Assembly (NCBI RefSeq): GCF_016865445.1
Contig: NZ_AP024412.1
Span: forward strand, 1,674,001 to 1,738,000
From: Mariniplasma anaerobium
GTDB taxonomy: Bacteria > Bacillota_I > Bacilli_A > Acholeplasmatales > Acholeplasmataceae
DNA: 64,000 bases
Direction: 5' to 3'
Below, one piece after another: positions 20,330 through 42,649 of the stretch. The notes under the pieces were generated by a model that was not told the origin of the DNA, did not search any database, and worked only from the letters and a program-made list of their open reading frames with translations. The position numbers and the translations under genes are program-made. Numbering within the stretch: position 1 is the stretch's first letter; each line of letters begins with the position of its first letter.

Positions 20330-21079
20330 TTATTTTTTTATATGTTTATCTTTTAAAGCAAGAACTGCAAAACTAGCAACATCGTATGCATATTTTTTTG
20401 AACCAAAACCAGCATCATATCCTAATTCCTTAGCTAGCCCATGATTAATTCTAGCTCCCCCAATAATAACAATAAATTGATCTCTTACATTTTCAGCTTC
20501 AAGCAATTCAATGAAACTTGTTAAGTTTTGAATATGAACATCTTTTTGTGTAACAGTCTGACTGATTAAAATAACATCTGCTTTATGTTCTATTGCTTTT
20601 TCTAAAAGTGTTTCATTATCCACGGATCCACCTAAATTAATAGCCTTAATGCCTTTATATCTTTCAAGACCATAATTTCCATTATATCCCTTCATGTTCA
20701 TAATCGCATCAATACCTACAGTATGTGCATCAGTTCCTGTTGACGCACCTATAAAGACAAGTGGCTCACTAAAATTATCTTTAATAAATATTTCAACTTC
20801 TTCTTTACTCATAACATTTGATTTGACTTCTACAACATGAAGATCATTTAAATCTATTTGATGTTCTGCTGTACCATAGACAATATAAAAACTAAAGTTT
20901 TTTCTAAGTGGTGCACTATGCACCACTGCAGCATTATGAATACCCATCTTATTTGCAAATGCTTTAGCAGCTTCTTCACCTAGTGCGTTACAAGGTATAG
21001 GAAGTGAAAAACTTAATTGGATTTTTCCATCATTTAATGTATCACCGTAGGGACGAATCATTTCTTTATGATTTGACAT
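20330..21079 (-). CDS. kamE: Beta-lysine 5,6-aminomutase, beta (B12-binding) subunit
   Basis: The 249-residue protein contains DAHTVG at 117-122, the D-x-H-x-x-G motif whose His ligates cobalt of adenosylcobalamin, and a Rossmann-like C-terminal half ending with IIGGARIN. Length is close to characterised KamE proteins (about 260). With KamD it moves the terminal amino group of beta-lysine from C6 to C5 using AdoCbl and PLP. It is the last gene of the operon and overlaps kamD by 14 nt. Confidence 0.95.
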   Translation of the reverse strand: MSNHKEMIRPYGDTLNDGKIQLSFSLPIPCNALGEEAAKAFANKMGIHNAAVVHSAPLRKNFSFYIVYGTAEHQIDLNDLHVVEVKSNVMSKEEVEIFIKDNFSEPLVFIGASTGTDAHTVGIDAIMNMKGYNGNYGLERYKGIKAINLGGSVDNETLLEKAIEHKADVILISQTVTQKDVHIQNLTSFIELLEAENVRDQFIVIIGGARINHGLAKELGYDAGFGSKKYAYDVASFAVLALKDKHIKK

Positions 21080-22640
21080 GATTAGCCTCCTTCAAAGATT
21101 TAATAAAATAATCTAGAATAGGGTTTTGATAGTTTTTATGCTTTTCAAATACACCATCTAATCCTTTACCGCCTAATTTATGGCGAGATATGCCTGCAAA
21201 AACACCTTTTTCTAATGTTTGAAACATACCATCATCTTCTATTTGTTGTAATAATGTTTGTGTGCTATTTAAAACATCATTGGCTCTTTTAACTATAATA
21301 CCATCTGGATTATAAGTGATTTCATTTCCAAAATCTTTAAATGCTTTTTCAATATATGATGCATTGTCTAAAGCAATTGCTCTATCTGATATGAATGGTG
21401 TATGAATGGCTTCTGTCATCATACCTAATAAATGTATAGATTGCTTAGAAGTAACTGCAGCAATATTAAATAATGCATTTTGTACGGATCCCATAAAGAT
21501 ATCGCCAGTCATATGCTTTGTTGGTGGCATATATTTTAATGGGGCATTGGGAAATATTTCTCTTGCCATTTCAGCTTGAGCTAATTCATATAAGAAACTA
21601 TTTTCTATATCTGGACTAATCTCATATGCATGACCAAGACCCATAAGTGATTCATCCATTAAAGCTTTTTTAGCAAATTGCTCATTAATAAACTGTGAAG
21701 CTAGTACGGTATGTGCATGATCATAAGCATCTGATGTTGTTAAGTAATTATCTTCACCCGTATTAATTGTTATGTTTGCATAAGCACTTAAAACTCTAGA
21801 AAAATATTGATCAACAAATGTTCTTTGCATATTAATATCTCTAAAGATGATGCCGTAAAGTGAATCATTAAGCATCATATCAAGACGTTCGATTGCACCT
21901 AAAGCTGCAATTTCTGGCATACATAAACCAGATGCATAATTAACAAGTTTGATATATCTTTTTTCTTCTAATGACACTTCATCTAATGCTTTTCTCATCA
22001 ATTTAAAATTTTCTTGAGTTGCATAAGTTCCACCAAAACCTTCAGTAGTTGCTCCATGAGGAACATAGTCTAATAAAGATTGTCCGGTACTTCTGATTAC
22101 TGCAATAATTTGTGCACCCTTTTTAGCAGCAGATACTGCTTGCTTAATATCTTCATAAATATTACCTGTAGCAACAATTACATATTTTTCAGGTGTATCA
22201 GTTTTTGGTGTCAGTTTAATTTGTGATTCTCTAAAAGATTTCATCTCATCAATTTTTTTTATTTCTGGTTTATAATATTGTGTTAAATTGCTTAAATAAG
22301 CGCTTTTAGACTTATTTGTATATTTTGATAAATTCAATTTCTTATGAGATACTCTTTTAGCTATCTCCAAAGGAGACAATCCATATTCATGTTTTGCATA
22401 TGATATATAATGACAAATCCCTAATGATATATCAGCTTCTTCTTTAATATGATCAACCACTATATTGACTAAAGGAATACCTAACTCATTAACATCATCA
22501 ACTCCAAGTAAACGCAAAACAGCTCTTTCAACTGAGACAGTTGAATTGATGTCTATAAAGTTTTGAACTTGAGTTGCTATATGACTAGCATGCAATCTAC
22601 ATGTTTCTATTGTTTTTAAATCTAGATTTAATTTAGACAT
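21066..22640 (-). CDS. kamD: Beta-lysine 5,6-aminomutase, alpha subunit
   Basis: The 524-residue protein matches the large TIM-barrel subunit of D-lysine/beta-lysine 5,6-aminomutase in length and in conserved segments (TGNIYEDIKQAVSAAKKGA, TEGFGGTYATQENFK and GSVQNAL). It provides the radical chamber for substrate and PLP. A strong GGAGGAAG site precedes the ATG. It lies between the P-loop gene and kamE, with overlaps on both sides, indicating tight co-expression in the lysine fermentation operon. Confidence 0.95.
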   Translation of the reverse strand: MSKLNLDLKTIETCRLHASHIATQVQNFIDINSTVSVERAVLRLLGVDDVNELGIPLVNIVVDHIKEEADISLGICHYISYAKHEYGLSPLEIAKRVSHKKLNLSKYTNKSKSAYLSNLTQYYKPEIKKIDEMKSFRESQIKLTPKTDTPEKYVIVATGNIYEDIKQAVSAAKKGAQIIAVIRSTGQSLLDYVPHGATTEGFGGTYATQENFKLMRKALDEVSLEEKRYIKLVNYASGLCMPEIAALGAIERLDMMLNDSLYGIIFRDINMQRTFVDQYFSRVLSAYANITINTGEDNYLTTSDAYDHAHTVLASQFINEQFAKKALMDESLMGLGHAYEISPDIENSFLYELAQAEMAREIFPNAPLKYMPPTKHMTGDIFMGSVQNALFNIAAVTSKQSIHLLGMMTEAIHTPFISDRAIALDNASYIEKAFKDFGNEITYNPDGIIVKRANDVLNSTQTLLQQIEDDGMFQTLEKGVFAGISRHKLGGKGLDGVFEKHKNYQNPILDYFIKSLKEANHVKS

Positions 22641-23622
22641 ATTCTTCCTCCATCTTCATGACATTATAGACTGGTAATTCAATTGCTTTTCTCATTTCAT
22701 TCATAAACTCTTTTTCATCATAGTGATTTCCACTTGGACTAAATGGATTGATTGTTACACATAAAAGTGGGCATGTATGAATTGTAGATATATCAATCTT
22801 TAATTTAGTCATGTTTAAAAATTCGTGTTGTGAAATTAAAAGTTTTGTTGGGTCATCACAAATCAATGAAAACCCCATCATCATTTTTTGTGTAAAAAGA
22901 TCAATATATTTAGATGTGATCGCACCTTTGATATATACCCAATCAATTTCAGTGTTAGTTGTTTTTAAAATCTTTTTTAAAGTTTCTATTTTTTTATTGT
23001 TAAAATTGTATAATCCAAACTTGCTTTGAACAATTAATGAAGCACTAGGTATTTTTTTAAACTGGTAAGATTTTTTTAGATTAAAAAAATCAACAATCAT
23101 CTTAGTTTTTTTAATCGTTTGAGCCATGTCTGGACCTTCAGCAGCTCCAGCAGCTAATATAATCCCATCAATCACTTCAATATTCGCAAATGTTCTACGG
23201 TTAAACGCACCATCAATAAATATCTTATCAACATATTTTTTCATCAATCGAATAACTTGATTGAGTTCTTTATTAGTCGTTGGTCCAGCAATTACCATAT
23301 ACCCATCAGTTATAATCTCAACAATTAAAATATTCCCAAGTGCTGATGGCATTTTCGTATGCTCTAAAATTTTATAAGATGCTTTTATAGTTTCTAAGCA
23401 ACTAGATGCAGTTGCAACAACCATACCCTTGCTTACAGATATCTTAGGCTTTGGTAAAAAATTGACTTGGTCTAAGTCTTCTCCATCAAGGCCTATGGAT
23501 GTTAATCCTATTTTAATATCTTGATAAAGTTTAAGGATAGCATTTAGAGTTGTAGTCTTACCGCTATTTTTAGATAATCCTATAATCCCTAAAATATCCA
23601 CTTTATCAATAATTCTTTTCAC
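22633..23622 (-). CDS. P-loop protein of the lysine fermentation cluster (KamB-like)
   Basis: The 329-residue protein starts at a GTG overlapping the end of kamA. It carries a Walker A motif GLSKNSGKTTT at about 15-25 and otherwise no catalytic motif I recognise. A P-loop protein of unknown function, sometimes called KamB, occurs next to the aminomutase genes in other lysine-fermenting bacteria, and this is its likely equivalent. A role as assembly or reactivation chaperone for the B12 enzyme is plausible, because other AdoCbl mutases have NTP-dependent reactivases, but this is inference. The MutS-related partner (KamC) known from some clusters is not here. Confidence 0.65.
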   Translation of the reverse strand: MKRIIDKVDILGIIGLSKNSGKTTTLNAILKLYQDIKIGLTSIGLDGEDLDQVNFLPKPKISVSKGMVVATASSCLETIKASYKILEHTKMPSALGNILIVEIITDGYMVIAGPTTNKELNQVIRLMKKYVDKIFIDGAFNRRTFANIEVIDGIILAAGAAEGPDMAQTIKKTKMIVDFFNLKKSYQFKKIPSASLIVQSKFGLYNFNNKKIETLKKILKTTNTEIDWVYIKGAITSKYIDLFTQKMMMGFSLICDDPTKLLISQHEFLNMTKLKIDISTIHTCPLLCVTINPFSPSGNHYDEKEFMNEMRKAIELPVYNVMKMEEEYV

Positions 23623-24880
23623 GAGCTATCCGTTCTTTTCTCTTTAGATGTTCTGGTTCTAGAGAAATTCTATTACCTTCTAACAATCCACTAATACCAT
23701 CTAACTTATCATTTTGACAATCTTTACAATTACATTCTGATTTATAATTTTCAGGTTCACTATAAGTTGTAATAACGCCTTCAAAATTTCTAAGTATAAT
23801 TTTACCTGGCGCATGCGAAATAACATAGTTAGGCATCACAGGTATCTTTCCACCACCACCAGGTGCATCAATCACAAAAGTAGGAACTGCCATTCCACTA
23901 ATATGGCCTCTAAGTCCTTCAATGATTTCAATTCCTTTAGATACTGATGTTCTAAAATGTTCAATACCAACTGATAAATCACATTGATATAAATAATAAG
24001 GTCTAACTCTAATTGCAATCAAATTTTTAACAAGCTTTCTCATTGTATGAACACAATCATTAATGCCTCTTAATAAAACAGATTGATTGCCTACTGGAAT
24101 ACCTGCATCAGCTAATAAATCAATTGCTTTTTTACTTTCAGGTGTAATTTCATCAGGATGATTAAAATGAGTGTTAACCCAAATTGGATGATATTTTTTA
24201 AGCATATTCACAAGTTTTTCAGTCACTCTTTGTGGCATAACAACTGGTGTTCTTGTGCCAAAACGAATCACTTGAACATGATCAATTTCTCTTAGTTTCT
24301 TTAAAATATATTCAATTCTTTCATCACTTACCATAAAAGCATCCCCACCACTTAATAATACATCGTTTACTTCTTCGTGACTACGTATATATTCGATGGC
24401 TTGATCAATTTGACTCACCTTAAGTTCAGCATCTTTAGTTCCCGCAAATCTTCTTCTTGTACAATGTCTACAATATGTTGAACACATATCAGTAATTAAG
24501 AAAAGGACACGATCAGGATATCTATGTGTTAATCCTTTAACTGGAGAATCATGATCTTCTGCTAATGGATCCCATAAATCATTTTTACCTGTAATTAATT
24601 CAGATCCAAAAGGAATAGCTTGCTGTCTGATTGGACAATGAATATTATCAGGATCAATTAAGGTTAAATAATATGGTGTAATTGCCATTCTTAAATGTCC
24701 TAAAATATTTAGAATAGTTTTTTCTTCATTTTCAGTTAATTTGATGTATTTCTTCAAATCTTTTGCGCTTTGAATTCGATTTGATGTTTGCCATTTCCAA
24801 CTATTCCAATCCTCATCTGATACATGATTAAAATATTGTTTTCTTCTCTCTAGATGACTTTCATTTAAAATAGATTTCAT
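23606..24880 (-). CDS. kamA: Lysine 2,3-aminomutase (radical SAM, PLP)
   Basis: The 424-residue enzyme has the radical SAM cysteines C133, C137 and C140 (CSTYCRHC), the PLP-lysine segment PGGGGKIP near 340, and a C-terminal Cys cluster (CNCKDC) matching the zinc site of clostridial KamA. It converts L-lysine to beta-lysine, the first step of fermentation. It has a GGAGG site. The complete length and all cofactor residues suggest an active enzyme. Confidence 0.96.
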   Translation of the reverse strand: MKSILNESHLERRKQYFNHVSDEDWNSWKWQTSNRIQSAKDLKKYIKLTENEEKTILNILGHLRMAITPYYLTLIDPDNIHCPIRQQAIPFGSELITGKNDLWDPLAEDHDSPVKGLTHRYPDRVLFLITDMCSTYCRHCTRRRFAGTKDAELKVSQIDQAIEYIRSHEEVNDVLLSGGDAFMVSDERIEYILKKLREIDHVQVIRFGTRTPVVMPQRVTEKLVNMLKKYHPIWVNTHFNHPDEITPESKKAIDLLADAGIPVGNQSVLLRGINDCVHTMRKLVKNLIAIRVRPYYLYQCDLSVGIEHFRTSVSKGIEIIEGLRGHISGMAVPTFVIDAPGGGGKIPVMPNYVISHAPGKIILRNFEGVITTYSEPENYKSECNCKDCQNDKLDGISGLLEGNRISLEPEHLKRKERIAREKNY

Positions 24881-24889
24881 ATAAACCTC

Positions 24890-25924
24890 CTAGGCATAGC
24901 GTGTCATAAATAAATCAAATAGTTGTTTGTTTTGTTTCAATATATCTAACGTAATATTTGCATGATTCTTAGTGTATCCATTACCAATAATCATTGTAAT
25001 ATCTTTACCTATACCCTCTGCACCTAATGCAGCTTTAGTAAAGGAAGTTGCCATGCTAAAGAAATATACTGTTCCTAATTCTTTTGTACATAAAATAGAT
25101 GTCATTTCTGTGTTCTCTGTGTTTACTACATTAATTGTTAAATCTGCAAGTTGTCCATTGGTAACTTCAGATAACTTTTCATAAACTTCAACACTACTTG
25201 TTGCACTTTCAACAATGATTGAATCAAAAAAGTGAAGTGATTCTAATTGTTCAACTTGACTTTGTTTTCTAACAAGTCCAATAACTTTACCATTTGGACC
25301 AACTTGATTTTTAGCCTCTAGTGCGCATAGTAAACCACTTTTTCCGTTTGCTCCAATAATAAATACAGTATCACCTTTTTTAGCTAATTTTCTAACTTGA
25401 GCAGGTGCTCCAGCTACATCAAGTGCAGCTAAAACAAATTTTTCATCTAGATCATTTGGAATGATTGCATAAATGCCTGAATCAAATAATATAGCTTGGC
25501 CTTTAATTTTTACTTGTTCATTAGTAATATTAATTGAGATAATTTCTTCAATTTGAAGAGGTGTTAAAGATAGAGATACTAAAGTAGCAAGTTTTACTCC
25601 TGGTTTTAAATCTTTTCCAGAAAAGTCTTTCCCTACTTCTTTAACCATACCGATTAACATCCCACCACTTTTAGTTACTGGATTTTGCATTTTGCCTTGT
25701 TTCTTAACGATTCCTAAAATCATTTCCTTCATCAATTCTGTATCTTGATTACATGCCTCTTTAATTTGATGAAATGATGCTGAATCAATATTAAGTGTAT
25801 TAACTTCAATTAAACATTCATTGTCATAACAAATAGGTGTTGAATCAATCTTAAAAGCTGCTTGAGGTAAAATCCCCTTTGGTTCAATAACACGGTGTGT
25901 TCCATATTTACATAATTTTTTCAT
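24890..25924 (-). CDS. kdd: L-erythro-3,5-diaminohexanoate dehydrogenase
   Basis: The 344-residue protein has a zinc-less MDR-like architecture with a nucleotide-binding segment VFIIGANGKSGLL near 186-199. Its length and neighbourhood fit Kdd, which oxidises 3,5-diaminohexanoate to 3-keto-5-aminohexanoate with NAD+. It lies between kce and kamA, as in clostridial and fusobacterial clusters, and overlaps kce by 17 nt. Confidence 0.92.
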   Translation of the reverse strand: MKKLCKYGTHRVIEPKGILPQAAFKIDSTPICYDNECLIEVNTLNIDSASFHQIKEACNQDTELMKEMILGIVKKQGKMQNPVTKSGGMLIGMVKEVGKDFSGKDLKPGVKLATLVSLSLTPLQIEEIISINITNEQVKIKGQAILFDSGIYAIIPNDLDEKFVLAALDVAGAPAQVRKLAKKGDTVFIIGANGKSGLLCALEAKNQVGPNGKVIGLVRKQSQVEQLESLHFFDSIIVESATSSVEVYEKLSEVTNGQLADLTINVVNTENTEMTSILCTKELGTVYFFSMATSFTKAALGAEGIGKDITMIIGNGYTKNHANITLDILKQNKQLFDLFMTRYA

Positions 25925-26750
25925 CTTTCTTCTCCTTGATATTTAAAATTTCTCTTGTCTCTTTTGGAGTCGCTATCTTTCTGTTATATGTTTTAGCTAT
26001 GTCAACAACTTTTTTAACAAGTTCTTGATTGCCTTTAGCTAATACACCTTTTGATAAATAGATATTATCTTCTAATCCTACACGGACATGACCACCATGA
26101 GCAATTGATAATTCGGCCAACGGAAACTCATATCTTCCAATACCTGCAACACTAAATGTTGCATCTGCTGGTATACTTTCTCTTAGAAAATGAAAATCTC
26201 TTGCTTCTCCACTCATACCTCCATTAACACCTAATACAAAACTAAAATGCATTGGATTATAAATAAAGCCTTTTTTATTTAATCTCAAAACTGAATCAAT
26301 ATGCCCTTTTTCAAAACATTCTAATTCAGGAACAATTTGTCTTTCATGCATGACTTTTGCAAAATACTTAATATCATTTTCTGTATTAATAAATATGTCA
26401 TCCCCTCCAAAATTAAGAGTTCCGCAGTCCAATGTAGCCATTTCAATATTTAATTGAGTCGGTTGGAGTCTTTCATCCTTTTTCATGCCTACTGCCCCAC
26501 CTGTTGATGGCTGAATAATAACATCTGGGCACTTCTTTAATATTGCATCAATAGCTTCTTTATATCTCATTTTATCTTGAGTAGGTGTTCCATCATCATT
26601 TCTTACATGTAAATGAATGATAGCAGCACCAGCTAAATATGCTTGATAAGCTTGTTCAGCAGTTTCTTGGATTGTATAAGGAACATATGGATTATCTTCT
26701 TTTGTAACCTCCGCACCAGATATTGCGCATGTAATAATAAGTTTATCCAT
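25908..26750 (-). CDS. kce: 3-keto-5-aminohexanoate cleavage enzyme
   Basis: The 280-residue protein belongs to the BKACE (DUF849) family. It has [11 protein letters not shown] near 43-53 with the two zinc-ligand histidines, and [12 protein letters not shown] near the C terminus. Kce converts 3-keto-5-aminohexanoate and acetyl-CoA into 3-aminobutyryl-CoA and acetoacetate. Its placement between kal and kdd supports this specificity within a family of varied substrates. Confidence 0.93.
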
Positions 26751-27788: not shown

Positions 27789-28434
27789 TATGCTCACCTC
27801 CAACAAGGTAATCAATAAAGTTATGTGGTGTTATAACCACTTCAGGATCTATAGCGTTAACTTTATGATCTACCATTGCAATAACCTTATGTGCTGCTGT
27901 TGCGATGATAGGATTAAAATTTCTTGCTGTTTTTGCATATGTAAGATTACCTAATGCATCAGATTGATAAGCGTTGACCAATGCAATATCCGCTCCAAGC
28001 GCTTCTTCTAATAAGAATTCTTTGTTAGCTACAGTTATCACTTGCTTACCTTCTTGAATAGATGTTTTAACACCAGTAGGTGTTAAAATCCCACCTAACC
28101 CGGCTCCATAAGCTCTAATTTGTTCAATTAATGTTCCTTGAGGCACTAATATGACTTCTAGTGCTCCTGTACTCATTTGCTGACCTGCAAAAGGATTTGT
28201 GCCTATATGGGATGCGATTACTTTTTTCACTTGATTATTCGCAATCAATTTCCCGACACCTTTATCAGGGTATCCTGCATCATTACAAATAATTGTTAAC
28301 CCTTTTACATTTGTTTCAACAACCCAATCAATTAGTAATTCTGGAGTACCACAAGTTAAAAAACCACCTACCATGATTGATTGATTATCTTTAATTAGCG
28401 ACTGAAATTCTTTCTTACCAATCCATTTATTCAT
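27781..28434 (-). CDS. atoD: Butyrate/acetoacetate CoA-transferase, subunit A
   Basis: The 217-residue protein has the CoA-binding glycine-rich start VGGFLTCGTPE near 22-32 and the usual subunit A core. It pairs with the subunit B gene that overlaps it. In lysine fermentation the pair activates acetoacetate produced by Kce, using butyryl-CoA as CoA donor. Confidence 0.9.
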   Translation of the reverse strand: MNKWIGKKEFQSLIKDNQSIMVGGFLTCGTPELLIDWVVETNVKGLTIICNDAGYPDKGVGKLIANNQVKKVIASHIGTNPFAGQQMSTGALEVILVPQGTLIEQIRAYGAGLGGILTPTGVKTSIQEGKQVITVANKEFLLEEALGADIALVNAYQSDALGNLTYAKTARNFNPIIATAAHKVIAMVDHKVNAIDPEVVITPHNFIDYLVGGEHIG

Positions 28435-28846
28435 GAACTTTTTCCTTTCTTGGCATCAGCATTGCTTCTCCCGTAAGCATACACTCATTATTTTCATCAA
28501 ATATTTCAGTTCTAAATATAACTCTATTTTTTTCCATAATGATTTCTTTAACTGTAACTAGTACTAAAAGCTTTGTATCTGGATATACGGGTTTTAAAAA
28601 CTTTAAAGACTGTGAACAATAAATAGTACCTTCTCCGGGGTACTCCATACCAAAAATTTTAGAAAATAAAGAACCAATAAACATTCCATGAACAATAGGT
28701 TTTTTAAATATAGTTGTTTTTGCATAATCCTCATTAAAATGAGCATCGTTCATGTCTTTTGTTAACTCCCCAAATGCAGCAACTTCTTCCTTCGTGATCA
28801 TCCTCTTATAGGACCTTTGATCTCCAACATGCATACTTTTAATCAT
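28427..28846 (-). CDS. MaoC-like (R)-specific enoyl-CoA hydratase
   Basis: The 139-residue hotdog protein carries the hydratase-2 signature D-x-N-x-x-H (DMNDAHFNEDYA) followed by KKPIVHGM, containing the catalytic Asp and His. It is the first gene of the operon, behind the riboswitch. It could hydrate crotonyl-CoA to 3-hydroxybutyryl-CoA, linking the two branches of lysine fermentation; clostridial clusters do not usually carry it, so the role is inferred. Confidence 0.85.
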   Translation of the reverse strand: MIKSMHVGDQRSYKRMITKEEVAAFGELTKDMNDAHFNEDYAKTTIFKKPIVHGMFIGSLFSKIFGMEYPGEGTIYCSQSLKFLKPVYPDTKLLVLVTVKEIIMEKNRVIFRTEIFDENNECMLTGEAMLMPRKEKVHE

Positions 28847-28865
28847 TTATATTCCACCTTTCCAC

Positions 28866-28901
28866 TCAAAAATAAAGAGAGCTGTTATAATAACAGCTCT
28901 C
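28866..28901 (-). terminator. Riboswitch-controlled terminator in the lysine operon leader
   Basis: On the minus strand GAGAGCTGTTA (28901-28891) pairs with TAACAGCTCTC (28887-28877), an 11-bp stem with a TTA loop, followed by TTTATTTTT. Its 5' arm contains the CTGT that should form the 3' strand of aptamer helix P1. Confidence 0.9.
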
Positions 28902-29064
28902 CATTACACTTAATGGCAATAATTGAAGCGTACCTTCAATTATCAAGATTAATGATTGGACAACATTAATCTTTCGGCAATTTATGCCTTCTACTTATCA
29001 CTTGAATGTCCAGATTCTCACTACGATAAGTATACCCAATAAATTGCACCTCTGTATAGACTCT
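28891..29064 (-). promoter_or_regulatory. Lysine riboswitch (L-box), probably an ON switch
   Basis: The minus-strand leader has the L-box core: AGAGGTGC (29053-29046), the P2 pairing GCAATTTAT with ATAAATTGC, the inner stem TACTTATC with GATAAGTA, AGAAGGC, and GCCGAA (28979-28974). Two hairpin loops carry TGGAC and GTCCA, matching the known loop-loop contact. P3 (AAGATTAATG/CATTAATCTT), P4 (AATTGAAG/CTTCAATT) and P5 (CCATTA/TAATGG) follow, then GGAGAGC as in the 3' core. P1 can form from ACAG (29055-29052) and CTGT (28897-28894). That CTGT lies in the terminator's 5' arm, so lysine binding should block termination. Confidence 0.85.
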
Positions 29065-29070
29065 AAGTCT

Positions 29071-29100
29071 ATTATATACAATTTATGAAAGCGCTGTCAA
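29071..29100 (-). promoter_or_regulatory. Promoter of the lysine fermentation operon
   Basis: On the minus strand a perfect -35 TTGACA (29100-29095) and a perfect -10 TATAAT (29076-29071) are separated by 18 bp. Transcription should start near 29064, just before the riboswitch. Confidence 0.88.
29086..29099 (-). promoter_or_regulatory. cre (CcpA operator) overlapping the lysine operon promoter
   Basis: The plus strand TGAAAGCGCTGTCA fits the cre consensus at every specified position. It overlaps the -35 hexamer and the start of the spacer, so bound CcpA should block RNA polymerase. This implies repression of lysine fermentation by preferred sugars. Confidence 0.75.
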
Positions 29101-29227: not shown

Positions 29228-29713
29228 ATGAAAAAAGACACTCGTATCAAGAATGTTATGGAAAAAGCTATACTTAAAGCTAAAACAACAATGAATGATA
29301 ATATTGGGGGACCATTTGGTGCTGCAATTATCGATCAGGATGGCAAAATTGTTTCAGTTACTTCAAACTCAGTATTAAAAGACCACGATCCAACAGCACA
29401 TGCAGAAATGAATGCGATAAGAGCTGCCGGAGAAAAATTAGGCACTCATGATTTAACAGGATGCACTTTAGTAACTACAGCATATCCATGTCCTATGTGT
29501 TTAGCCGCAACCATTTGGGCTAATATTAAACATGTTGTTTATGGATGTCGTCCAACTGATGCAGATAAGATTGGATTTAGAGATGAATTCATCTATCGCT
29601 TCATGAGAGAGGATAATCCTGATAAACAAATTTTAACTCTAGATGAAAAACATCGAGATGAATGTTTATTGTTATTTAAAGAATATAAAGAAAAAAATAA
29701 AGAACTGTATTAA
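29228..29713 (+). CDS. guaD: Guanine deaminase (cytidine-deaminase fold)
   Basis: The 161-residue protein has the zinc motifs HAEMNAI (H58, E60) and PCPMC (C88, C91) and a C-terminal region (GFRDEFIYRFM) resembling Bacillus GuaD, where the C-terminal segment closes the active site of a domain-swapped dimer. It converts guanine to xanthine and ammonia. This would feed the xanthine-degrading operon at 37837-56999. A GAGAGG site precedes the ATG. A related nucleoside deaminase specificity cannot be excluded. Confidence 0.85.
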   Translation: MKKDTRIKNVMEKAILKAKTTMNDNIGGPFGAAIIDQDGKIVSVTSNSVLKDHDPTAHAEMNAIRAAGEKLGTHDLTGCTLVTTAYPCPMCLAATIWANIKHVVYGCRPTDADKIGFRDEFIYRFMREDNPDKQILTLDEKHRDECLLLFKEYKEKNKELY

Positions 29714-37836: not shown

Positions 37837-38820
37837 CTATTTATTTCCCATTGTCATTGCCATAACTGCTTTAGCAGTATGCAATCTATTTTCAGCTTCT
37901 TGATAAACAATTGAATGTTTTCCATCAATCACTGAATCTTCTACTTCATTGCCTCTATCTGCAGGTAGTGCATGCATATAATATACATTTGGACTAGCTA
38001 ACTTCATCATGTCTTCAGTACATTTCCAACCTTTATAAGATTCTAAAAGATCATCAATAACTGCTGTTGATTGATTATTAACCCAGCTTCCCCAGTTTTT
38101 AGGAATCACAACATCAGCATTCGTAAATGCTTCTTTCATATCATGAGTAATCTTAAATGATCCACCATTTTCTTCTGCATTTTTTCTTGCTTGTTCTACT
38201 GCCCAATCAGGTAGATCATAACCTTTAGGATAAGCTAATGTCACATCAATACCATATCTTGGAAATAATAAAATTTGAGTTAATGGTACACTAATTGGTT
38301 TCTTATGACTTTTTGCATAAGCCCAAATAATAGAGACTTTAAGTTTTTTAGTCGTCTTTGTGACCTCTTGAATTGTCATTAAATCAGCTAGACCTTGCAT
38401 AGGGTGATAAATATCGCATTGAAGATTCATAATCGGCACAGTAGAATTGACTGCCATTTCACGGATATATTTGTTTCCTATACCCCAGTTACAATATCTA
38501 CACGCAATACCATGACCATAAGATGAAAGAATTGTTGCAGTATCTTTAGCAGATTCGCCATGTGAAATTTGCATCGTAGAAACATCTAAAAATGTTCCAT
38601 GACCTCCAAGATGTGCAATTCCCGCTTCCATAGAATTTCTTGTTCTTGTAGAAGCTTCAAAAAACATTAAGAACGCTGTCTTATTGGTTAGATAATCTGT
38701 AGGTTCATTATTTAAAAACTTTCTTTTAAGTTCTTTTGATACTTCAAGAAGTTTATCAATCTCTTCTTTTTTCCATTCTTCTAACGTAATGAAATGTTTA
38801 CCTTTAAATAATGGTTTCAT
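37837..38820 (-). CDS. ygeW: YgeW-like carbamoyltransferase-family protein
   Basis: The 327-residue protein has the aspartate/ornithine transcarbamylase fold, with the carbamoyl-phosphate loop STRTR at 57-61, HPMQ at 139-142 and HALPADRGNE near the C terminus. The length and cluster fit YgeW. This family belongs to purine/ureide degradation clusters and may cleave a carbamoylated intermediate to carbamoyl phosphate, which yields ATP through carbamate kinase. The natural substrate is uncertain. It is the last gene of the operon. Confidence 0.88.
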   Translation of the reverse strand: MKPLFKGKHFITLEEWKKEEIDKLLEVSKELKRKFLNNEPTDYLTNKTAFLMFFEASTRTRNSMEAGIAHLGGHGTFLDVSTMQISHGESAKDTATILSSYGHGIACRYCNWGIGNKYIREMAVNSTVPIMNLQCDIYHPMQGLADLMTIQEVTKTTKKLKVSIIWAYAKSHKKPISVPLTQILLFPRYGIDVTLAYPKGYDLPDWAVEQARKNAEENGGSFKITHDMKEAFTNADVVIPKNWGSWVNNQSTAVIDDLLESYKGWKCTEDMMKLASPNVYYMHALPADRGNEVEDSVIDGKHSIVYQEAENRLHTAKAVMAMTMGNK

Positions 38821-38821
38821 T

Positions 38822-40042
38822 TTATTTCTCCTTTTTAATGTGTTTTAAATACATAAGAGGAATTGCTGCATACATTGCGCAAGCCTCAATTAAATCCTTT
38901 TTCCAAGTCTTTTCGTTTGGCGCATGAGCTTCTTCTTCATGTCCTGGTCCAAAGCCAATACAAGGAATTTCATGTCTTCCCATAATTGATACACCATTTG
39001 TTGAAAATGTCCATTTATCAACAATTGGATTTTTTTTAAATAAGTTCTTATATGCATCAACCAAAGATTCACAGACAACATGATCTTCTTCTAGGACCCA
39101 TGTTGGAAAATATGATTGTGTTGGATATACTAAACCAGTATATGCAGCTCTTTCATATGTATACATTTCTACTACAGCTCCAGCAGCTTTAACTGAAGGT
39201 AGGTCTCTAATTTCTTCTAATGCAGATAAATAAGTTTCACCATGTGTTAATCTTCTATCAATAGAGATTGAACATCCATCAGCAACAGCACATCTTGAAG
39301 GTGAACTAAAATATACTTGAGATACTGTCATTGTTCCTTTACCTAGGAAAGGATCATCTTTAAGTCTATCATTTAATTCTTTTACTTCTAATAAGATTGG
39401 AGCCATCTTGAAGATTGCGTTATCTCCTCTTTCAGGAGCACTACCATGACAACTCACACCATGTGTACTGACTTTAATTTCCATACGTCCACGATGACCA
39501 CGATATATTCTACAGGACGTTGGTTCAGTAATGACTACAAATTCAGGTGTAACTTTATCTTCTTCAATAATATATTGCCAGCATAAGCCATCACAATCTT
39601 CTTCTTGAACGGTTGCAGTTATTAAAAGTGTATAATCGTCTTCAAGTTTCAATTCTTTAATAATTTTACCAGCGTAAACCATGGATGCCATACCACCTTC
39701 TTGATCAGAAGTTCCTCTACCACCAATAGTTTCTTCATCTTCATATCCTTCATAAGGATCAAAAGTCCAGTTTTTAATTTCACCAATACCAACAGTATCA
39801 ATATGACCGTCCATAGCAATTAAATGTTTACCATGTCCAACCTTACCAAACAAGTTTCCCATAGGGTCTAGTGTTACTGAGTCAAATCCAACTTTAATCA
39901 TTTCTTCTTTAATGCGTTCAATGACTTTTTTTTCATCACATGATTCACTAGGGATTCTAACCATATCTCTTAAAAACTTAGTCATATCCTTTTCATAGGC
40001 TTGAGCTTTTTTTAAAATGTCATCAAAAGGAATTTTTATCAT
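38822..40042 (-). CDS. ygeY: YgeY-like M20-family hydrolase
   Basis: The 406-residue zinc hydrolase has MDGHIDTVG (metal-binding His and Asp), [10 protein letters not shown], the catalytic TVQEED and a dimerisation insert. The family acts on amide or carbamoyl bonds, and YgeY occurs in purine degradation clusters next to YgeW. It starts in an ATGA overlap with the PLP gene upstream. Confidence 0.88.
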
Positions 40043-41403
40043 AGTTCTTTACCTCTTTTTTCCAAAATCTTTTTATCATATTTTTTAATTAATTCATATT
40101 CATCATTCCAAAATTTCATATCTCTCATTTGATTTAAATAATCAATCGAATAATCAAATCTTAGCCAATCATGTTCTTTTTGTTTAAATAATCTTTCTTT
40201 TTTAGCCATAGATCTTAAATCATCAACATGTTCTGTATCAACTTTTAAGAAAATATCTTTAAACCATCTTCTTAAGACAAAGTCTTCAGTTTCTAAAACG
40301 CGGTGATTTAAATTATCAATAACACTGTTGTATCTATCATAACCATCGGTTGCAACTGTAACGATATTATCATTAGCACCTAATTTTAAATACTTAGCCA
40401 TCTTGATTGCACCAAGAATATTACATATAGTAGATACACCAAATATATCTCTTAAACTTTCAGCAACTTTAGGATCAACACCATTTTCAACTAAAATATG
40501 TGGCGCATCATGGATGATCTTTAATCCTCTTACAGAATCTTCATCACTTATTAATGCCACAAAATCAGTTGTTAAAACATTATGAATTAATGTACACATC
40601 TTATCTCCGATACCTTCGATACGATGTTGTCCAACTCCGCCATTCATAAGTGTAGAACATTCATATGGTTCTAGTGCAACAACTCTTGCTTCTGGAAATG
40701 CTTGTTTAATTTGATCGCCTGCTGCCAATGTTCCTGCACTACCTGGTGCAGAAGCAAAGCATGCAATTCTTCCATTACCAATACCTTTTACAGCTTCAAT
40801 TGCACTATTACCTGTAACATGTCTATGAAAACGATAATTAGGTAGTAATTCAAATTGTGCTAATGATCTATAATTAGGATTTTTCTTTAATTCATAAGTA
40901 CGTTGCAACGTTAAGATAACATCAGATTCAGTACCTGGTGTTAAATCTAGTTTTGCACCATATCTTTTGATTCTATCATATCTTTCTTTACTCATATTAT
41001 CTGGCATAATAACGATTGAATCGTATTTCATTAAATTACAAATATATGCAACACCAATTCCAAAGTTACCAGTTGATGGTCCTAAAATTGTATGTTTTTC
41101 TGGAATAATTTCTTTATCTACACATCCTTCAATAAGTGTAGAATATGCAGGTCCCACTTTGTGGGATCCAGAAGGAAAATATTTTCCTAATAAAACAACA
41201 ATATTTGCGTCAACACCAGTTAATTCTTTAGGTAGTACAATTTTATTAACTTCATTGTTTTCATTTTTCCATGTAATATTAAATAAATTTATAGGATTTA
41301 ATTCATCCTCTTTTGAATGTAGAGCTTTCTTTCTAATTTCAGGATCTATATGACTCGGATTAAGCATTTCATCATATGTAGGTCCAAACGGTACTTTAGG
41401 CAT
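40039..41403 (-). CDS. Fold-type-II PLP enzyme, probable ammonia-lyase of the purine operon
   Basis: The 454-residue protein has the cysteine-synthase-like fold: PLP lysine K82 in GSHKVG and the phosphate-loop-like STGNFG at 110-115. It takes the operon place of YgeX (2,3-diaminopropionate ammonia-lyase) but does not look like it in the lysine region. It may use the same or a related amino acid released from the purine ring. An extra C-terminal stretch (about 370-454) is Lys/Glu-rich. The family is clear, the substrate unknown. Confidence 0.75.
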
Positions 41404-42649
41404 GTCTTTTTTCTCCTTTTTCTTCTATTATTTGTTTTAAGTCTTCTAGTCTAGGTTTAACTAACGTTGGTGCCTTTACTGCTTTTTGTGCGTTTAAAGG
41501 ATCCTTTAGACCATTACCAGTCATAATGATTGTTACTGTTTCATTTTCTTTGATGATTTTGGTTTTGATTGCTTCTTTTACACCTGCTAAAGCTGCCACT
41601 CCAGCTGGTTCTCCGAAGATACCTTCGCTACTTCCTAACTGTTTCATACTTTGTAAAATTTGTTCATCTGTTATAGCTATCCAAGCACCAGATGATTTTT
41701 TAACTGCTTGTATTGCTTTAACAGGATTTCTTGGAATACCAACAGAAATACTATCAGCTATTGTGTTTTCCATTGCTTCTTTTAAAGGTTTGCTATTTAT
41801 ATATGCATCAACAAAAGGTGAACATCCCGTGCTTTGAACACCTAATAATTTAGGTATTTTTTTTATTAATTTTAATTGCAGTAAATCATAAAATCCTTTA
41901 TAAACTCCTGCAATTGTGCATCCATCACCTACTGAAACTGCAACCCAATCTGTTAATCTAAATTTAAGCTGTTCTGCAATTTCTAAAGCCACTGTTTTTT
42001 TACCTTCTACTAAGTGAGGATTTATCGCTGCATTCCTGTTATACCACCCATACTCATTAATCGCAAGTTTTGATAGATTAAACGTGTCTTTATAGTCTCC
42101 ATCAACACTAATAACCTTAGAACCATAAATTAATAACTGATTAAGCTTTCCTACAGGAGCTCTTTTAGGAACAAATATAACAGTCTTTAATCCCATACGT
42201 GCAGCATGACAAGCTAAGCTTGATGCTGCATTTCCTGTTGAACTACAGGAAATTGTATCATATCCACTCTCAATTGCTTTTAGGACTGCTATTCCACTTG
42301 CTCGATCTTTGAGACTTGCACTTGGATTTAATCCTTCATCTTTAATGTATATTTTTTTAATATGCAACTCTTTTTCTAAATTATTTGATCGATATAACGG
42401 TGTTCCACCTATTTTAAGCATTTGATCGATATGTGTTTTCTCTACTGGAAGCATTGGCATATAACGCCACATTGTAAATTCTTCTTGTTGTTTAAAATAG
42501 TTTATATCAACAAATTTACGCATTGCTTCATAATCATATTCGATATCTAAAATACCTTTTTCTCCACAAGAAGGACATGTCATGATATCTTTGTCATAAT
42601 CAAGTGTTTGATTGCATAATGTACACCTATATTGTTTTATAAAACTCAA
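41396..42649 (-). CDS. Threonine-synthase-like PLP enzyme with N-terminal zinc ribbon
   Basis: A TTG start at 42649 overlaps the TGA of the adenine deaminase gene (TTGA) and has AAGGTG upstream. The 417-residue protein begins with four cysteines (9, 12, 25, 28) forming a zinc ribbon, followed by GGTPLY, the PLP lysine K114 in SLKDRAS and STGNAASS. This is the threonine synthase type. No homoserine pathway gene is nearby, so inside a purine operon it may be a beta-elimination or amino-acid lyase instead. Confidence 0.8.
   Translation of the reverse strand: MSFIKQYRCTLCNQTLDYDKDIMTCPSCGEKGILDIEYDYEAMRKFVDINYFKQQEEFTMWRYMPMLPVEKTHIDQMLKIGGTPLYRSNNLEKELHIKKIYIKDEGLNPSASLKDRASGIAVLKAIESGYDTISCSSTGNAASSLACHAARMGLKTVIFVPKRAPVGKLNQLLIYGSKVISVDGDYKDTFNLSKLAINEYGWYNRNAAINPHLVEGKKTVALEIAEQLKFRLTDWVAVSVGDGCTIAGVYKGFYDLLQLKLIKKIPKLLGVQSTGCSPFVDAYINSKPLKEAMENTIADSISVGIPRNPVKAIQAVKKSSGAWIAITDEQILQSMKQLGSSEGIFGEPAGVAALAGVKEAIKTKIIKENETVTIIMTGNGLKDPLNAQKAVKAPTLVKPRLEDLKQIIEEKGEKRHA

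What the first reader, a model, noticed from the sequence alone, without database searches (positions are those of the whole stretch)
28866..29100. Lysine riboswitch wired as an ON switch for lysine fermentation
The leader of the lysine fermentation operon has the complete L-box core (AGAGGTGC, GCCGAA, five helices, complementary loops TGGAC/GTCCA). The CTGT of helix P1 lies inside the 5' arm of an 11-bp terminator, with no separate antiterminator visible. Lysine binding should therefore disrupt the terminator and turn the operon on, the opposite of the usual lysC-type OFF switch and sensible for a catabolic operon. The L-box family is established; the ON direction is inferred from the pairing. 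I recall comparative work placing L-boxes before lysine degradation genes, so the location may not be new, but the direct P1-terminator overlap deserves a test.
Basis: partly seen in the sequence, partly recalled or inferred. Interest (0 to 1): 0.85.

Follow-up and report, generated by a model that had tools for sequence, protein, structure and literature searches.

The report
Lysine-ON riboswitch for lysine fermentation
A lysine-sensing RNA in front of a bacterium's lysine-eating operon is built so that lysine should switch the operon on; this use of the sensor had been predicted before, but here it is backed by relatives in many genomes that keep the same design.

Summary
Window 28886-29062 (minus strand) is a full-length lysine riboswitch aptamer (RF00168, 82.6 bits, E 4e-20). 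It lies between a consensus promoter and a ten-gene lysine-fermentation operon in an Acholeplasmataceae genome. The 3' strand of P1 (CUGU, 28893-28896) sits inside the 5' arm of a 12-bp intrinsic terminator, and no other antiterminator was found. P1 and the terminator therefore exclude each other, which predicts that lysine turns the operon ON.

Comparison supports this. In the same class, 44 of 46 kam operons had an L-box found upstream, and all 44 show the overlap. None of 79 L-boxes before transport or biosynthesis genes does; their terminators start at least 17 nt downstream. The shared segment covaries with both partners. The genome's second L-box, before a transporter gene, has an OFF layout. 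With P1 removed, the catabolic aptamers group apart from the others, also across Clostridia and Fusobacteria, though Fusobacterial platforms differ and are unresolved.

L-boxes before kal/kce genes and their positive regulation are already in the literature. The design is that of the pbuE adenine ON switch. This is a well-supported new member of a known kind. The ON direction is inferred; no experiment was found.

The parts
29095..29100 (-). -35 box TTGACA
   Evidence: read from sequence; 18-nt spacer to TATAAT; promoter not tested
29071..29076 (-). -10 box TATAAT; transcript start predicted near 29064
   Evidence: read from sequence; start site inferred from the usual spacing
28886..29062 (-). 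lysine riboswitch aptamer (L-box)
   Evidence: RF00168, 82.6 bits, E 4.3e-20, model 1-182
29052..29055 (-). P1 5' strand ACAG
   Evidence: cmscan alignment, minimum-energy fold of truncated RNA
28893..28896 (-). P1 3' strand CUGU, shared with the terminator 5' arm
   Evidence: three-strand covariation
29008..29012 (-). loop L2 UGGAC, can kiss L3
   Evidence: sequence
28957..28961 (-). loop L3 GUCCA, can kiss L2
   Evidence: sequence
28891..28902 (-). terminator 5' arm GGAGAGCUGUUA
   Evidence: hairpin of -16.7 kcal/mol
28876..28887 (-). terminator 3' arm UAACAGCUCUCU
28868..28875 (-). terminator U tract UUAUUUUU
28854..28861 (-). ribosome binding site AAAGGUGG, 7 nt before AUG
   Evidence: sequence
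28427..28846 (-). first gene: MaoC-like hydratase
   Evidence: Pfam PF01575
27781..28434 (-). CoA transferase subunit A
   Evidence: PF01144, TIGR02429
27138..27815 (-). CoA transferase subunit B
   Evidence: PF01144, TIGR02428
26743..27135 (-). kal, 3-aminobutyryl-CoA ammonia lyase
   Evidence: NF052388 above cut-off
25908..26750 (-). kce, 3-keto-5-aminohexanoate cleavage enzyme
   Evidence: NF052387 above cut-off
24890..25924 (-). kdd, 3,5-diaminohexanoate dehydrogenase
   Evidence: NF052381 above cut-off
23606..24880 (-). kamA, lysine 2,3-aminomutase
   Evidence: TIGR03820 above cut-off
22633..23622 (-). kamB, lysine 5,6-aminomutase reactivase subunit
   Evidence: NF052386 above cut-off
21066..22640 (-). 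lysine 5,6-aminomutase alpha subunit
   Evidence: NF052384 and PF09043
20330..21079 (-). lysine 5,6-aminomutase B12-binding subunit
   Evidence: PF16554, PF02310

Best explanation
It is a transcriptional lysine-ON riboswitch. Transcription starts a few nucleotides before P1 (inferred). RNA polymerase makes the aptamer first; a short P1 (ACAG with CUGU) closes it before the terminator 3' arm emerges (computed). Without lysine, the terminator 3' arm displaces ACAG from CUGU, the 12-bp hairpin forms next to the U tract and transcription stops (hairpin computed; termination inferred). With lysine, the bound five-helix junction holds P1 and the adjoining GGAGAG strand, strand exchange is blocked while polymerase passes the U tract, and the lysine-fermentation operon is transcribed (inferred). 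The choice must be kinetic, because the finished terminator is about 13 kcal/mol more stable than the P1-closed aptamer.
For: Aptamer. Mutually exclusive pairing. In the model without ligand, P1 pairing probability is about 0.6-0.7 until the RNA reaches 28884, then falls to 0 by 28881 as the terminator forms; energies -43.9 versus -56.9 kcal/mol. No alternative partner for the terminator arms. Comparative: all 44 kam-operon L-boxes found in the class overlap (39, two of them settled by eye; five more), against 0 of 79 others; Fisher p = 4e-32 for 39 versus 79, uncorrected for relatedness, over seven families. The other L-boxes precede solute-binding proteins, LysA, LysC, NhaC-type and other transporters. 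Three-strand covariation: shared nucleotide 3 occurs as C-G-C or U-A-U and nucleotide 4 as A-U-A or G-C-G, with P1 paired in 45 of 45 and the terminator in 43 and 44 of 45. The same genome's second L-box, before a solute-binding protein gene, has its terminator downstream, and AGAGGCGCU can pair with AGUGUCCUCU as an antiterminator. The operon consumes lysine.
Against: Nothing was measured. P1 is only 4 bp (about 2.9 kcal/mol), so readthrough could be low even with lysine. The class relatives are not independent. In Fusobacteriaceae the kal-operon L-boxes do not show a compact terminator over P1, and Clostridium rhizosphaerae L272 has a longer, different platform, so the design is not universal for catabolic L-boxes.
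Confidence: 0.87

Rival explanations
1. OFF switch of the usual lysC kind: lysine binding frees a terminator by closing P1, with an antiterminator that I failed to see.
For: All lysine riboswitches described as tested in the papers read repress (for example PMC11477304; PMC10974012), and RF00168 members elsewhere in this class have that layout.
Against: The terminator itself contains the P1 3' strand, so P1 and terminator cannot coexist. No leader segment pairs with either terminator arm beyond chance. An OFF logic would shut lysine degradation when lysine is abundant.
Confidence: 0.05
2. Unresponsive or nearly constitutive attenuator: the 4-bp P1 is too weak, so the terminator always wins and lysine has little effect; induction would come from another regulator.
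For: Terminator favoured by 13 kcal/mol and P1 worth only 2.9 kcal/mol. In pbuE variants, changes of P1 composition can give constitutive termination or loss of switching (PMC7707468).
Against: P1 pairs are kept in 45 of 45 leaders through coupled changes, and the conserved aptamer core is kept, which would not be expected of a dead sensor. The pbuE switch works with a terminator that displaces P1.
Confidence: 0.07
3. The aptamer senses something other than lysine, such as a pathway intermediate (beta-lysine).
For: The catabolic aptamers form a group apart from the others, with differences in J1/2 and in L4.
Against: Core positions (AGG, GC, GCCGAA, UG, GG.G) are largely the same in both groups, and lysine is the natural inducer for the pathway.
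Confidence: 0.03

Closest known systems
L-boxes upstream of kal/kce lysine-catabolic genes (Clostridium sticklandii, Fusobacterium nucleatum, Thermoanaerobacter), described in PMC5584792
   Same: Same aptamer family, same pathway genes, stated there to be positively regulated (citing a 2009 review that I could not read).
   Different: That paper's main text does not mention terminators at all (zero occurrences), so the P1-terminator mechanism is not described there. Here the mechanism is read from sequence, extended to Acholeplasmatales and relatives, and contrasted with OFF-type L-boxes.
pbuE adenine riboswitch of Bacillus subtilis (PMC7707468)
   Same: Transcriptional ON switch in which the terminator displaces the P1 helix of the aptamer (strand exchange).
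   Different: Different aptamer and ligand. Here the loop-side part of the terminator beyond P1 (the toehold) is only 2 bp.
Glycine riboswitch before the glycine cleavage genes (ON; PMC11477304)
   Same: Amino-acid sensor that activates breakdown of its own ligand.
   Different: Different aptamer family.
lysC-type lysine riboswitch (OFF)
   Same: Same RF00168 aptamer, transcription terminator as output.
   Different: There the terminator is separate from P1 and an antiterminator uses the P1 3' strand; opposite logic. The window genome's second L-box (L002) has this layout.

Membership tests
Lysine riboswitch (RF00168) | Match to the covariance model above the curated score | tested here: met
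   82.6 bits against 30, full length
Lysine riboswitch (RF00168) | Conserved junction core (AGAGG, GCCGAA, GGAG.GCU) and five helices around it | tested here: met
Lysine riboswitch (RF00168) | L2-L3 kissing interaction | tested here: met
   UGGAC and GUCCA complementary in the expected loops; pairing itself not tested
Lysine riboswitch (RF00168) | Binds L-lysine | not testable with these tools
   no binding assay
Transcriptional strand-exchange ON switch (pbuE-like) | P1 3' strand lies inside the 5' arm of an intrinsic terminator | tested here: met
   kept in 44 of 44 kam-operon L-boxes found in the class
Transcriptional strand-exchange ON switch (pbuE-like) | No separate antiterminator | tested here: met
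   no pairing beyond chance with either arm
Transcriptional strand-exchange ON switch (pbuE-like) | Ligand raises readthrough | not testable with these tools
   needs transcription assay
OFF-type (lysC-type) L-box platform | Terminator separate from P1 with antiterminator built on the P1 3' strand | tested here: not met
   terminator starts 6 nt before the P1 3' strand
Lysine fermentation (kam) operon | kamA, kdd, kce, kal and both lysine 5,6-aminomutase subunits in one operon | tested here: met
   NCBIfam equivalogs above cut-off for KamA, Kdd, Kce, Kal, KamB and the alpha subunit; B12-binding subunit by Pfam

The most novel reading that the evidence does not exclude
Catabolic L-boxes are a distinct natural lysine-ON branch of the lysine riboswitch, with their own aptamer lineage, travelling with lysine-fermentation operons across Bacilli, Clostridia and Fusobacteria (with varied platforms). 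The P1-terminator overlap can then be used to find unrecognised lysine-consuming genes, such as the class III aminotransferase behind L269.
Probability: 0.6. Interest if true: 0.55.

Novelty: new member of a known kind. Interest (0 to 1): 0.42.

Why it matters
In the papers read, the lysine riboswitches described as tested repress, and lysine-activated versions were obtained by engineering (PMC10974012). I found no experimental test of a natural lysine-ON switch. This leader is a compact, ready candidate. The same genome holds an ON and an OFF L-box with related aptamers, a natural pair for asking what sets the sign of a riboswitch. The overlap rule also predicts direction from sequence and may flag new lysine-catabolic genes.

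Tried and rejected
A separate antiterminator: searched the whole leader for partners of both terminator arms, none beyond chance. A structure using sequence upstream of the promoter's -10 box (the AUAGACU hairpin and the AAAUUG pairing): set aside because the TATAAT box makes it unlikely to be transcribed. First energy runs used a P1 shifted by one base and two scripts stopped early; their P1 values are superseded by what one search printed before stopping and. A generic antiterminator score for the separate-type L-boxes was only weakly informative (median z -1.0), so their OFF logic rests on layout and literature, not on that score. L112 first scored as overlapping; inspection shows an ordinary separate terminator, AAAACGC/GCGUUUU. 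L074 and L102 needed inspection because their loops or stems fell outside the automatic limits; L102's hairpin over P1 is weak (-4.6 kcal/mol). Seven kam operons first looked free of an L-box; five have one that Rfam's fast filters missed. The founding comparative paper (Rodionov 2003) and the 2009 review cited for positive regulation were not held, so what they say about the mechanism is not checked.

Full report
What is there. On the minus strand a TTGACA-18-TATAAT promoter (29095-29100, 29071-29076) is followed by a lysine riboswitch aptamer (28886-29062; RF00168, 82.6 bits, E 4.3e-20, full length), an intrinsic terminator (28876-28902) with a U tract (28868-28875), a ribosome binding site and the first gene of an operon. 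The operon runs from 28846 to 20330 and holds a MaoC-like hydratase, two CoA-transferase subunits, Kal, Kce, Kdd, KamA, KamB and the two lysine 5,6-aminomutase subunits. KamA, Kdd, Kce, Kal, KamB and the alpha subunit pass NCBIfam equivalog cut-offs; the rest are by Pfam. The closest named genomes are Acholeplasmataceae.

Anatomy of the switch. P1 is ACAG (29052-29055) with CUGU (28893-28896). CUGU lies inside the terminator 5' arm GGAGAGCUGUUA (28891-28902), whose partner is UAACAGCUCUCU (28876-28887). P1 and terminator therefore cannot coexist. From the predicted start near 29064, the RNA cut before the terminator 3' arm has the complete five-helix aptamer with this P1 as its minimum-energy structure, -43.9 kcal/mol; opening P1 costs 2.9 kcal/mol; the full RNA with terminator is at -56.9. 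Along growing RNAs P1 is paired with probability about 0.6-0.7 until the 3' end reaches 28884 and is lost by 28881, when the terminator takes over. These are model energies without lysine, magnesium or tertiary contacts. Neither terminator arm finds a better partner in the leader than chance would give. The choice has to be made during transcription, as in the pbuE adenine switch, where P1 composition and the toehold set the outcome (PMC7707468).

Comparison within the class. RF00168 was searched in 296 genomes of the class and Kdd was used to find kam operons. Of 46 kam operons examined (window included), 39 had an L-box upstream in Rfam scans and five more were recovered with a profile of the catabolic L-boxes, four of which Rfam also finds with permissive filters. 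The remaining two are L094, on a truncated contig, and L097. All 44 L-boxes have a terminator-like hairpin whose 5' arm includes P1 3'-strand nucleotides (L074 and L102 settled by inspection). Of 79 other L-boxes of the same class none does; where a terminator was found it begins at least 17 nt past the start of the P1 3' strand (L112 corrected by inspection, and a few have no terminator called). Their first genes match solute-binding proteins (39), LysA-type decarboxylases (13), Na+/H+ antiporters (13), ACT-domain kinases (about 7) and other transporters; none has kam genes downstream. Fisher p is 4e-32 for 39 against 79. Relatedness makes that figure too small, but the 39 fall in seven families.

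Covariation. In 45 overlap-type leaders, the four inner P1 pairs form in every sequence while the shared nucleotides change together with both partners: C-G-C against U-A-U at the third and A-U-A against G-C-G at the fourth (P1 5' strand, shared strand, terminator 3' arm). This is what one strand serving two exclusive helices predicts.

Contrast in the same genome. The genome has one other RF00168 match, L002, before a family 3 solute-binding protein gene. Its terminator AAGUGUCC/GGGUGCUU lies downstream of P1, and AGAGGCGCU (junction and P1 3' strand) can pair with AGUGUCCUCU as an antiterminator (read by eye). That is the usual OFF layout.

Beyond the class. In Clostridia, kal-kce leaders of a Vallitalea (L265) and a rumen Clostridia genome (L261) also overlap; Clostridium rhizosphaerae (L272) has a longer, different platform. 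Fusobacteriaceae and neighbours commonly have an L-box right before kal, but the compact overlapping terminator is not seen; a small hairpin over P1 followed by a later U tract occurs in several, and I could not settle their logic. With P1 and flanks removed, a tree of 146 aptamers separates overlap-type from the rest with a single change (38.7 in shuffles). With Fusobacteria added, 65 overlap-type or catabolic aptamers fall in two groups among 195 (2 changes against 54.7). The alignments are short and not structure-based, so I claim grouping, not exact history.

What was known. Mukherjee and colleagues (PMC5584792) list L-boxes before kal/kce genes in Clostridium sticklandii, Fusobacterium nucleatum and Thermoanaerobacter and say these genes are positively regulated, citing a review. 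Their main text does not mention terminators. I could not read Rodionov 2003 or the review. Full-text searches gave no experimental test of a natural lysine-ON switch; lysine-activated versions were engineered (PMC10974012). So the kind is known, and the mechanism by direct P1 overlap with its comparative support is the addition.

Verdict. Confidence in ON is 0.87; what remains is a transcription assay.

Noticed in passing
L269 (riboswitch) = L273, gene L273:528-1787, Clostridiaceae bacterium S18.Bin088: L-box with the P1-terminator overlap directly before a single class III aminotransferase (PF00202, no specific family cut-off reached), with no kam genes there. The ON layout predicts a lysine-consuming enzyme.
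   Followed up: partly
window 28427-28846: The first gene of the lysine-fermentation operon is a MaoC-like hydratase, common as first gene in relatives of this class but not part of the pathway as I know it; its role is unknown.
   Followed up: no
L002 1501-1665: Second L-box of the genome, OFF layout, before a solute-binding protein: a natural opposite-sign pair with the window L-box.
   Followed up: yes
L337-L353 (kal leaders of Fusobacteriaceae and neighbours): Catabolic L-boxes without a compact terminator over P1; several have a small hairpin GAGAGCUA/UAGUUCUU and a U tract 35-60 nt later. Logic unresolved.
   Followed up: partly
L349 1-135 and 243-421; G384:C2:239140-239545; G062:C4:168019-168414: Pairs of L-boxes in tandem; the pair in L349 lies before a kal gene.
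   Followed up: no
L265 (Vallitalea) and L272 (Clostridium rhizosphaerae) leaders: Two hairpins in series after P1, with the loop of the first complementary to an arm of the second in Vallitalea; possible three-state platform.
   Followed up: no
L065, L066, L067, L070, L077: Clear catabolic L-boxes missed by Rfam's fast filters at gathering threshold (found by a profile of their own kind, four of them also by permissive cmscan).
   Followed up: yes
window 29228-29713: A cytidine/guanine-deaminase-like gene is transcribed divergently from the riboswitch promoter region.
   Followed up: no
window 37837-42649: By reading the translations, an apparent cluster of carbamoyltransferase-like, M20 peptidase-like, diaminopropionate ammonia-lyase-like and threonine-synthase-like genes; not searched against families.
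   Followed up: no
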